Shown: positions 37,748-40,089 of the stretch, one piece after another
Numbering within the stretch: the first letter of the stretch is position 1
Layout of the letters: each line of letters begins with the position of its first letter
Source: Bacteriovoracaceae bacterium
GTDB taxonomy: Bacteria > Bdellovibrionota > Bacteriovoracia > Bacteriovoracales > Bacteriovoracaceae
Assembly (NCBI GenBank): GCA_028101965.1
Contig: JAOHMI010000014.1
Span: 1-41,383 of the forward strand
Direction: 5' to 3'
Length of the DNA: 41,383 nucleotides
Program-made: the position numbers and the translations under genes
The notes under the pieces: generated by a model
Told to the model about the DNA's origin: nothing
The model's input: only the letters and a program-made list of their open reading frames with translations
The model's database searches: none

Positions 37748-38776
37748 CTAGTAATTAGAGATGGATTTTTGCTGCCATTCCATTAAAGCTAATCTTAAGT
37801 CTCCCACAAAAATTTCCCAAAAATTTCCCTGATTAAACTGGGGAAAGCCACGCTGGAACGCCAAATCTTCGTGCCTTTTAGAAATCCAAACTTGATAATT
37901 TAGTTGGCGCAATATCCTCAATAAAGGAATCAATTTTTCTTCATGAAAAGGGTACTCCCGAAATAACTCATATGAATCAATGAAGCTATCCCTTAGATCT
38001 GGCCAAGTCGTTTCAATATTTTGATGAATAAAAAAAAGATCCTGAATCGATGGAGCCATTAACATATCATCAAAATCAATTAAATAATGCGACGTATCTC
38101 TCCAAATGATATTTCCAAAATGCAAATCCCCATGGGCTCTTAGGTATTTTGCATTTTTAAAGGGATCATCCACAATTGTTTTTTCAAACTCATCACAAAA
38201 ATAATTAAATTGACCTAGAAAAACTGAATCATTACTTTTAAATTCTAATAAAAATGCCTTATTCGCATGATAAAAAGTATCCAAATCTAGCCGAGATCGA
38301 TTTTTCGCTGGTTTCATTTCACCTATATTATGCATACGAGCAATGGTTCTTCCAATAGACTCAACTTTATCTTTAGTCAGCTCAGAGTCAATTCTTCCAC
38401 CAAAGCGTTCATAAAAACAATAATATAGACTGAGCTCTTCATTAAAAAAGAGAGACTCACCGTCAATCTGCGATGGCGCAACAATAGGTATCTCTTGCTC
38501 TTTTAAGTCAAACATAAAATCATGTTCATCTTGTAAGGTTTCCAACCCCCATCGTCCCGGACGGTAGAATTTAGCCACAATACTGCCCTGCTCTACTTCC
38601 ATTTCATACACTCTGTTTTCCATGGAATTGAGAGTTAAAACTCTTCCTGTGGTCTTAAATCCGTGAGAGTCGGCAATATCTAAAATCACCTCTGGTAAGA
38701 GTTGAGTAAAAAGTAAAGTTTGCTGATCGCCCCAAATTGATTTATTTTTATTTTCTTCATTCATAATTTTTACCAT
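37748..38776 (-). CDS. srkA: Stress response kinase A (YihE/SrkA family)
   Basis: This protein has 342 residues from ATG 38776, or 338 from a second ATG at 38764; neither has a clear Shine-Dalgarno. E. coli SrkA has 328. Family features are FTQLLPEVILDIADSHGF at the N-terminus, ENRVYEMEVEQGSIVAKFYRPGRW with the ATP-binding Lys, FYERFGGR, the catalytic loop RAHGDLHFGNIIW and the metal-binding LIDFDDM. It is a Ser/Thr kinase of the aminoglycoside-phosphotransferase fold linked to envelope and oxidative stress survival. It is coupled to the secreted SH3-like gene downstream, an uncommon partner. It is divergent from the zinc-finger/histone gene. Confidence 0.92.
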   Translation of the reverse strand: MVKIMNEENKNKSIWGDQQTLLFTQLLPEVILDIADSHGFKTTGRVLTLNSMENRVYEMEVEQGSIVAKFYRPGRWGLETLQDEHDFMFDLKEQEIPIVAPSQIDGESLFFNEELSLYYCFYERFGGRIDSELTKDKVESIGRTIARMHNIGEMKPAKNRSRLDLDTFYHANKAFLLEFKSNDSVFLGQFNYFCDEFEKTIVDDPFKNAKYLRAHGDLHFGNIIWRDTSHYLIDFDDMLMAPSIQDLFFIHQNIETTWPDLRDSFIDSYELFREYPFHEEKLIPLLRILRQLNYQVWISKRHEDLAFQRGFPQFNQGNFWEIFVGDLRLALMEWQQKSISNY

Positions 38777-38801: not shown

Positions 38802-38848
38802 AATTTCCTAATTAAATTTGATTAAAGCCTAAATTAGGAGTCGACACA

Positions 38849-39307
38849 ATGTATTTTAAAAAATGTGGAAAATGTGCCAAAGAAATCCCTTTTGGAGGTC
38901 TCTATTACGTTTGCTCAGTCTCTTCATGCCGAAAACATACATACTGTAGCGTAGATTGCTGGCAATTGCATAATGAAGTTTTATCTCACAAAGCTGCCTG
39001 GTCCGAAGAAAACCGAGCTCCAAAATTTAATCCTAATACTACAGAAAAAAAGCCAATCGAAGGAAAAAGAAGAATTATCTCTTCACCAAAACCCAATATT
39101 TCATCAACAACCAATAACGCGAATGTACCTATGGATATATTAGTGGTCGTCTCTAAAATGAAAGCTTACGTGAAGGCGAAGCATGATATTAACGTCTCAG
39201 GAGGAGTTAATGATGCTTTATCCGATATCATTCGTCATGCTTGCGATCAGGCGGCTGAAAAAGCAAAAATTGCAGGAAGAAAAACGTTAATGGATCGAGA
39301 TTTTTAA
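38849..39307 (+). CDS. Zinc-finger/histone-fold fusion protein
   Basis: This 152-residue protein has two parts. Residues 1-50 form a treble-clef-type zinc finger of the MYND/ZZ kind: C6-x2-C9, C22-x4-C27, C33-x3-C37 (TYCSVDCWQLH), H41 and H47. A Lys/Arg-rich linker (60-90) follows. Residues 93-152 look like a histone fold: a helix with VVVSKMKAYVKAKHD, then VSGGVNDALSDIIRHACDQAAEKAKIAGRKTLMDRDF, where GRKT...D is the loop-2 signature of archaeal and bacterial histones. The chain stops there, so the third helix is missing or very short. Histones are known from Bdellovibrio (Bd0055). ATG follows AGGAG with eight bases of spacing. The stop shares one base with the next start. Confidence 0.75.
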   Translation: MYFKKCGKCAKEIPFGGLYYVCSVSSCRKHTYCSVDCWQLHNEVLSHKAAWSEENRAPKFNPNTTEKKPIEGKRRIISSPKPNISSTTNNANVPMDILVVVSKMKAYVKAKHDINVSGGVNDALSDIIRHACDQAAEKAKIAGRKTLMDRDF

Positions 39308-40089
39308 TGAAAAAAATAACATTAGAAAACCTCGAAAATATCTTTAACGATCTACTCCATGCAAATTCTTTTAAAGATTATGGTCCAAATGGTGTACAAG
39401 TAGCTTCATCTCCCTTTTGCAGTTCAATACTCTTTGCAGTTAGCTCTGACCAAACCACCATTGATTACGCTATTAAACATAATTTTGATACAATAGTGGT
39501 TCATCATGGACTCTTTTGGACTTACCAAGGGGCCAAACCTATCAAGGGCTTTCATGGAGAAAGAATAAAAAAGCTTATTCGTAATAACATTAATTTGATC
39601 GCGTATCATTTGCCTTTAGACGGACATGATAAAGTAGGAAATGCAGCAACTCTGGCCAAAAAACTTAACCTAACTAATATCGAGCCATTTGGTGAATATA
39701 AAGGGAGTCTCGTTGGAGTCAAAGGCGAATTTGAAAAGCCAATTAAGCCGCTTCAATTCAAAGGTCAATTAGAAAAATCCGTACGCCCCATTATTTTTCA
39801 TGCCTCACCAAGCACAGACAAAATAAAAAATATTGGAATAGTTACCGGCGGGGCAAATGAATATTGGAAGCAAGCAAAAGAAGAAGGACTTGATGCTTTC
39901 CTGACTGGTGAAATTAGTGAATATAACTATTTTGAAGCCATTGAGAATAATATTCATTATTTTGCTTGCGGACACCATGCCACAGAAAAATATGGAGTCC
40001 AGGCATTAAAGAGTCATCTAATAAAAAACTATTCTAAGAGCTTTAAGTTTCATCAACTGAAGTTTTTTGATAGTAAGAATCCAGTCTAA
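39307..40089 (+). CDS. Nif3-like dinuclear metal-centre protein
   Basis: This 260-residue Nif3/YbgI-family protein has metal-ligand motifs VVHHGLFW near residue 60, IAYHLPLDGHD near 100, TGEISEYNYFEA and CGHHATEKYGVQAL near the C-terminus. The family forms hexameric rings with a two-metal site; YbgI-type members have been annotated as GTP cyclohydrolase I type 2, which is not well established. Its ATG overlaps the stop of the zinc-finger/histone gene (TAATG), so the two are co-translated. Confidence 0.9.
   Translation: MKKITLENLENIFNDLLHANSFKDYGPNGVQVASSPFCSSILFAVSSDQTTIDYAIKHNFDTIVVHHGLFWTYQGAKPIKGFHGERIKKLIRNNINLIAYHLPLDGHDKVGNAATLAKKLNLTNIEPFGEYKGSLVGVKGEFEKPIKPLQFKGQLEKSVRPIIFHASPSTDKIKNIGIVTGGANEYWKQAKEEGLDAFLTGEISEYNYFEAIENNIHYFACGHHATEKYGVQALKSHLIKNYSKSFKFHQLKFFDSKNPV

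What the first reader, a model, noticed from the sequence alone, without database searches (positions are those of the whole stretch)
38849..39307. Zinc finger fused to a short histone fold in a bacterium
Seen: an N-terminal Cys/His cluster (C6, C9, C22, C27, C33, C37, H41, H47) followed by a C-terminal helix-rich segment ending in AGRKTLMDRDF. Known: archaeal histones have A-GRKT-x-x-x-D at loop 2, and Bdellovibrio uses a histone (Bd0055) as a chromatin protein. I recall a described bacterial group with a ZZ-type finger joined to a histone fold lacking helix 3; this may be a member. Inference: a chromatin protein with a targeting or dimer-bridging finger, coupled to a Nif3-family gene and divergent from the stress kinase srkA.
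Basis: partly seen in the sequence, partly recalled or inferred. Interest (0 to 1): 0.8.

Follow-up and report, generated by a model that had tools for sequence, protein, structure and literature searches.

The report
A zinc-finger histone from predatory-type bacteria
This gene encodes a real, conserved small bacterial histone with a zinc finger at its front end. It is a new member of the "ZZ histone" group described in 2024, and its job in the cell has not been worked out.

Summary
The domain matches Bdellovibrio histone HBb (Bd0055) by sequence (phmmer E=1.4e-7; family profile E=1.1e-18) and by predicted fold (Foldseek top hits, TM 0.72-0.76). Helix 3 is reduced to one short turn. Nine of ten DNA-contact residues of HBb are identical. 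All eight zinc ligands are invariant in 26 homologues. This makes it a member of the known "ZZ histones" (alpha3 family, Schwab 2024), found here in Bdellovibrionota, Myxococcota and Binatota.

The proposed coupling to Nif3 and srkA does not hold up: among 86 distinct homologues with a visible downstream gene only the window has Nif3 next door. The commonest partner is a NadD-like gene (16 of 86). The "ZZ" label rests on fold only; no Pfam ZZ match was found. The finger was lost in place in several relatives and occurs alone in others, so it is a separable module.

Most likely it is a DNA-bending histone dimer carrying two tethered protein-binding fingers, a scarce adaptor rather than bulk chromatin; the finger's partner is unknown. 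Family genomes also hold a DNA-binding-type histone doublet that I did not find described.

The parts
38849..39307 (+). CDS of the zinc-finger (ZZ) histone, 152 aa plus stop
   Evidence: homologous full-length ORFs in about half of 129 family genomes
38836..38840 (+). AGGAG, likely ribosome-binding site, 8 nt before the ATG
   Evidence: read directly
38849..39022 (+). zinc finger, aa 1-58: sites C6/C9/C33/C37 and C22/C27/H41/H47 (pairing inferred from the cross-brace described for ZZ histones), followed by the invariant E-x-x-x-[AS]-P end (aa 52-58, a predicted strand)
   Evidence: fold match to p62 ZZ domain, E 0.11, prob 0.91
39023..39124 (+). flexible basic linker, aa 59-92 (7 K/R, 2 D/E; aa 77-89 pLDDT below 50)
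39065..39079 (+). KRRII, the window's copy of a recurrent [RK][RK]x[ILV] linker motif
   Evidence: 54 of 88 homologues against 9.0 expected in shuffled linkers
39125..39304 (+). alpha3-type histone fold, aa 93-152: alpha1 101-112, alpha2 121-141, alpha3 only 149-151; RKTxxxxD loop 2
39307..40089 (+). DUF34/NIF3 family gene, start overlaps the histone stop by one base; neighbour, not shown to belong
   Evidence: adjacency not conserved
37748..38776 (-). SrkA-type kinase, divergent; neighbour, not shown to belong
   Evidence: adjacency not conserved

Best explanation
It is a ZZ histone. Shown here: a zinc-finger module with eight invariant ligands, a flexible basic linker, and a C-terminal alpha3 histone fold nearest to Bdellovibrio HBb. 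Inferred: two copies pair through the histone fold and bind the DNA backbone without sequence preference, bending it as HBb does. The two fingers hang on about 35-residue tethers and each grips another protein through the conserved surface next to the zinc sites. The protein would thus be a low-abundance adaptor that brings a partner to bent DNA, not a bulk packer of the chromosome. My odds: ZZ-histone identity 0.97; DNA binding as a dimer 0.8; finger acting as a protein-binding adaptor 0.5.
For: Histone half: HBb 8cmp/8fvx E=1.4e-7, profile E=1.1e-18, Foldseek 9f0e TMt 0.76. Nine of the ten HBb residues ranked as DNA contacts (PMC11317129) are identical, against 25 of 56 positions overall (hypergeometric p=0.0019). 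Across 88 finger+histone proteins S9, R51, T53 and D58 (HBb numbering) are 88/88 and K12 and K52 are always K/R. Finger: all ligands invariant in 26, E..[AS]P end in 88/88, model pLDDT about 95, fold match to p62 ZZ. Modularity: histone-only proteins nested inside the ZZ tree, some at the same locus; stand-alone fingers in genomes where a histone query found nothing. Low expression of the Bdellovibrio ZZ histone (PMC11390915).
Against: No DNA binding, zinc content, dimer or partner has been measured for any ZZ histone in the papers found. The finger model has no complex. HBb contact T8 is A or V in nearly all ZZ histones (V101 here), and position 23 is V here, so DNA affinity may be lower. The finger could itself bind nucleic acid. 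Schwab et al. report that the H3-tail pocket of eukaryotic ZZ domains is not conserved.
Confidence: 0.6

Rival explanations
1. General chromatin protein: the ZZ histone is a main nucleoid packer, like HBb, with the finger bridging neighbouring dimers.
For: DNA-contact residues conserved. No second histone was found in the window's own genome, so it may be the only one there.
Against: The genome is only 66.6% complete. The Bdellovibrio ZZ histone is weakly expressed (PMC11390915) and Bd3044 does not compensate for Bd0055 (PMC10627809). Many relatives carry another histone as well.
Confidence: 0.2
2. The histone fold serves as a dimerization or heterodimerization platform (as in TAF or NF-Y-like proteins) and the finger is the main functional part; DNA bending is incidental.
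For: The finger occurs alone in a fixed operon in family f3, in genomes where the histone query found nothing, so it has work of its own. The finger is about as strongly constrained as the histone.
Against: DNA-contact residues, not just the dimer core, are the most conserved part of the histone half. Several lineages lost the finger but kept the histone with RKT.
Confidence: 0.15
3. Finger and histone both bind nucleic acid, the finger adding a second DNA or RNA contact so that one dimer bridges two duplexes.
For: The finger is mildly basic (8 K/R, 5 D/E) and the linker is basic; several zinc fingers bind nucleic acids (general knowledge).
Against: The invariant region after the last His is acidic (WAEE...AP); cross-brace fingers of ZZ and MYND type are known as protein binders (general knowledge); the fold match is to a peptide-binding ZZ domain.
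Confidence: 0.1
4. Functional operon with Nif3, for example zinc delivery to the finger or joint control with the dinuclear-metal protein.
For: One-base stop/start overlap in the window; DUF34 proteins often neighbour zinc-binding proteins such as COG1579 (PMC8469502).
Against: Adjacency unique to the window among 86 distinct homologues; a NadD-like gene takes that place in 16.
Confidence: 0.03

Closest known systems
ZZ histones (alpha3 histone family; Schwab et al. 2024, PMC11390915), e.g. D0LYE7 of Haliangium ochraceum; probably Bd3044 of B. bacteriovorus (inference)
   Same: N-terminal C4 + C2H2 zinc finger, linker, C-terminal bacterial-dimer-like histone fold with short alpha3
   Different: Only in detail: V116 replaces a near-universal Thr; Nif3 is the downstream gene
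HBb / Bd0055 bacterial dimer histone (8cmp, 9ezz, 9f0e)
   Same: Histone fold, short alpha2, one-turn alpha3, 9 of 10 DNA contacts
   Different: HBb has no finger or linker, is abundant, and has T8 where ZZ histones have A/V
Eukaryotic ZZ domains (p62, HERC2, p300, ZZZ3)
   Same: Cross-brace fold by model (Foldseek E 0.11, prob 0.91 to p62 ZZ), C4 + C2H2 ligands
   Different: No detectable sequence match to Pfam ZZ; usually C-x4-C at ligands 3-4; invariant WAE..[AS]P end
MYND-type zinc fingers
   Same: Sub-threshold Pfam match in 8 of 26 homologues; YCS..C motif
   Different: Last ligand is His instead of Cys; below Pfam cut-off
Archaeal nucleosomal histones (HMfB)
   Same: RKTxxxxD loop 2 and RD clamp
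   Different: Full alpha3 and tetramer/hypernucleosome assembly; weak profile match here (1a7w E=0.19)

Membership tests
ZZ histone (alpha3 family, Schwab 2024) | N-terminal ZZ-type finger with C4 and C2H2 sites | tested here: met
   eight ligands present and invariant in 26 homologues; fold match to p62 ZZ
ZZ histone (alpha3 family, Schwab 2024) | C-terminal bacterial-dimer-like histone fold | tested here: met
   HBb best hit by sequence and fold
ZZ histone (alpha3 family, Schwab 2024) | truncated alpha3 (3-4 residues) and shorter alpha2 | tested here: met
   alpha3 149-151, alpha2 121-141 in the model
ZZ histone (alpha3 family, Schwab 2024) | binds two zinc ions | not testable with these tools
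   needs ICP-MS or a structure
Histone (DNA-binding) | RKTxxxxD motif and DNA-contact residues | tested here: met
   9 of 10 contacts; family-wide
Histone (DNA-binding) | dimerises and binds DNA | not testable with these tools
   no multimer prediction or assay available
Eukaryotic ZZ domain, Pfam PF00569 | sequence match to the Pfam ZZ model | tested here: not met
   no hit in 26 proteins or 17 isolated fingers; so ZZ-like by fold, not filed under PF00569
MYND finger, PF01753 | match over the curated cut-off | tested here: not met
   11-13 bits against 22.7
Archaeal histone NF043032 / PF00808 | match over the curated cut-off | tested here: not met
   14.3 against 50 bits; 16.4 against 21.4 bits
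Nif3-coupled system | conserved adjacency | tested here: not met
   1 of 86

The most novel reading that the evidence does not exclude
ZZ histones are bacterial chromatin adaptors: DNA-bending histone dimers that display two protein-reading fingers. The same finger also works without any histone in other Bdellovibrionota, so it recognises a ligand widespread in these bacteria and is plugged onto DNA by histone fusion.
Probability: 0.25. Interest if true: 0.65.

Novelty: new member of a known kind. Interest (0 to 1): 0.36.

Why it matters
ZZ histones were named from predictions in 2024 and none has been studied experimentally in the papers found. This member confirms the group is widespread and strongly constrained in Bacteriovoracaceae. 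Natural finger-loss, finger-only and full-length versions allow a clean test of what the finger adds to a bacterial histone.

Tried and rejected
Nif3/srkA operon as a functional clue: rejected, not conserved. NadD-like downstream gene as a partner: recurrent (16 of 86) but a minority and concentrated in Bacteriovorax-like genomes, so not built on. Pfam, NCBIfam and PDB sequence searches to class the finger as ZZ, MYND or other: no significant match, only cytochrome c3 CxxC chance hits. Phage origin: no match in 50,697 phage records. Second histone in the window's genome: none found, but the genome is 66.6% complete. Promoter and terminator scans were at chance level. One letter next to the finger in one row of alignment A3 was mistyped (G for T, not a ligand); A3 is used only for the negative searches.

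Full report
1. What is there. Window 38849-39307 (+) is a 152-aa ORF with an ATG start and an AGGAG 8 nt upstream. The window is contig 46 of a 2.78-Mb draft genome, 66.6% complete. Several contigs of same-family genomes coincide in length with named records (e.g. 34,777 and 361,554 bases) called Deltaproteobacteria, Halobacteriovoraceae or Bacteriovoracaceae, so I place it near Bacteriovoracaceae (inference).

2. Histone half. phmmer against PDB sequences gives the Bdellovibrio histone HBb/Bd0055 (8cmp, 8fvx) at E=1.4e-7 over aa 96-151, then the Leptospira histone HLp (9qt0, 0.0011). A profile of 26 homologues matches HBb at 1.1e-18. The AlphaFold2 model has alpha1 101-112, alpha2 121-141 and a three-residue alpha3 at 149-151; the linker 77-89 is disordered. 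Foldseek ranks the HBb structures first (E 1.6e-3, prob 1.00, TMt 0.72-0.76), then HLp and HTkC.

3. DNA-binding residues. The HBb-DNA structures and simulations name N22, R57, S9, T53, T8, S24, K10, K12, K52 and K16 as main contacts (PMC11317129). Nine of ten are identical in the window protein; only T8 differs (V101). Overall 25 of 56 positions are identical, giving a hypergeometric p of 0.0019. In 88 distinct finger+histone proteins S9, R51, T53 and D58 are 88/88, K12 and K52 always K/R, while T8 is A or V in 86. DNA binding is thus strongly inferred, not shown.

4. Finger. C6, C9, C22, C27, C33, C37, H41 and H47 are invariant in 26 aligned homologues. Two relatives have C-x2-C in place of C-x4-C at ligands 3 and 4 (L102, L110). 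Directly after the last ligand every one of 88 proteins has an E..[AS]P stretch (WSEENRAP here), a predicted strand. This extension is not a zinc ligand and is a good candidate for a binding surface. No Pfam ZZ match exists; MYND, VATC and others appear only below threshold. At fold level the p62 ZZ domain appears (E 0.11, prob 0.91). "ZZ-like cross-brace finger" is the accurate wording.

5. Linker. aa 59-92 is basic. A [RK][RK]x[ILV] motif (KRRII here) occurs in 54 of 88 linkers against 9.0 expected by shuffling, maximum 18 in 200 shuffles. It persists in histone-only relatives (e.g. SPRRILVK in L050). Its role is unknown.

6. Distribution and evolution. 121 of 129 family genomes hold some relative of the profile, and full-length ZZ histones occur in about half (my count of the match rows). 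The genome-collection scan confirmed 447 relatives; the best 80 lie in Bacteriovoracaceae, Bdellovibrionales, Oligoflexia, Myxococcota and Binatota. A tree of histone domains (only 56 columns, so coarse) puts the window in a supported set of nine ZZ histones (95/96). Histone-only proteins are nested inside the ZZ part. Some sit at the same locus as full-length ones (L052/L053 against L024, L057 against L136), so the finger was lost in place more than once. Conversely six f3-family genomes (91-98% complete) have a 72-75-aa finger alone; a doublet-histone query found no histone in any of them. One of them, G088, did give a weak histone-like match to the window protein.

7. Neighbourhood. In the window the next gene is Nif3, sharing one base, and srkA is divergent. 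Among 86 distinct full-length homologues with a visible downstream gene, Nif3 is next only in the window; a NadD-like gene (some with a Nudix domain) is next in 16; the downstream gene is on the opposite strand in 31.

8. Known or new. Schwab et al. 2024 (PMC11390915) define ZZ histones as an N-terminal ZZ finger with a C4 and a C2H2 site plus a bacterial-dimer-like alpha3 histone; all testable features are met here. They report low expression in B. bacteriovorus and judge binding to H3-like tails unlikely. No functional study was found in the paper library. Verdict: a new member of a known kind, real, function open.

9. Mechanism. Best reading: a non-specific DNA-bending dimer that carries two tethered protein-binding fingers, a scarce adaptor. 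Shown: domain make-up, constraint, loss and independence of the finger. Inferred: dimer, DNA bending, partner binding.

10. Side result. 46 of 129 family genomes carry one gene for a histone doublet: two HBb-like folds in one chain of about 130-140 aa, with SK.K and RKT intact in both halves. The model is confident (pLDDT 92.1, pTM 0.86). Its best matches are histone pseudodimers and H2A-H2B chimeras, and one half fits HBb at 0.7 A. Each half forms one clade, so one origin is likely. The papers read describe bacterial pseudodimers as DUF1931 proteins lacking DNA-binding residues (PMC12701072, PMC13088155); these doublets are below the DUF1931 cut-off. They may deserve their own study.

Noticed in passing
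L142 3086-3472(-), L144 3016-3420(-), L146 2991-3392(-), L149 2482-2886(+) and others; 46 of 129 family genomes: Histone doublets: two HBb-like alpha3 folds in one ~130-140-aa chain, both with intact SK.K and RKT DNA-contact motifs; AF2 pLDDT 92, pTM 0.86. Unlike the DUF1931 pseudodimers described for bacteria, which lack these residues; not found described in the papers read.
   Followed up: partly
L059-L061, L160, L161 (Bdellovibrionota family f3): The same finger as a stand-alone 72-75-aa protein directly upstream of a membrane H+ pyrophosphatase, usually followed by ExbB and ExbD, with a sugar epimerase, a type IV prepilin peptidase and an ABC-2 permease upstream where the contig reaches; a doublet-histone query found no histone in these genomes.
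   Followed up: partly
L159 3066-3347(-), L156 323-607(-), L157 3028-3306(-), L052 11233-11493(+): Singlet histones with long Lys/Ala/Pro-rich, H1-like N-terminal tails in the same family (L052); probably the tailed FtF histones mentioned by Schwab et al.
   Followed up: no
L049, L050, L052, L053, L054: Finger-less orthologues of the ZZ histone, four of them at the same locus type as full-length ones (divergent c3 gene upstream; NadD-like gene downstream, in L050 and L054 a few genes further); the linker RRILV motif is kept in most.
   Followed up: partly
L057 (histone, 103 aa) and L058 (finger, 105 aa), both genome G086: Finger and histone on different contigs of one genome, while L136 has them fused at the locus matching L057: a natural split.
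   Followed up: partly
L024 6544-7278, L029 6457-7479, L049 6275-7342 and 13 more: Divergent NadD-like adenylyltransferase, sometimes fused to a Nudix domain, immediately downstream of the ZZ histone in 16 of 86 distinct loci, often with overlapping ends.
   Followed up: partly
literature: PMC11318664 versus PMC10627809: A review states that deletion of Bd3044 is lethal; the passages read in the primary paper report deletion attempts only for Bd0055.
   Followed up: no
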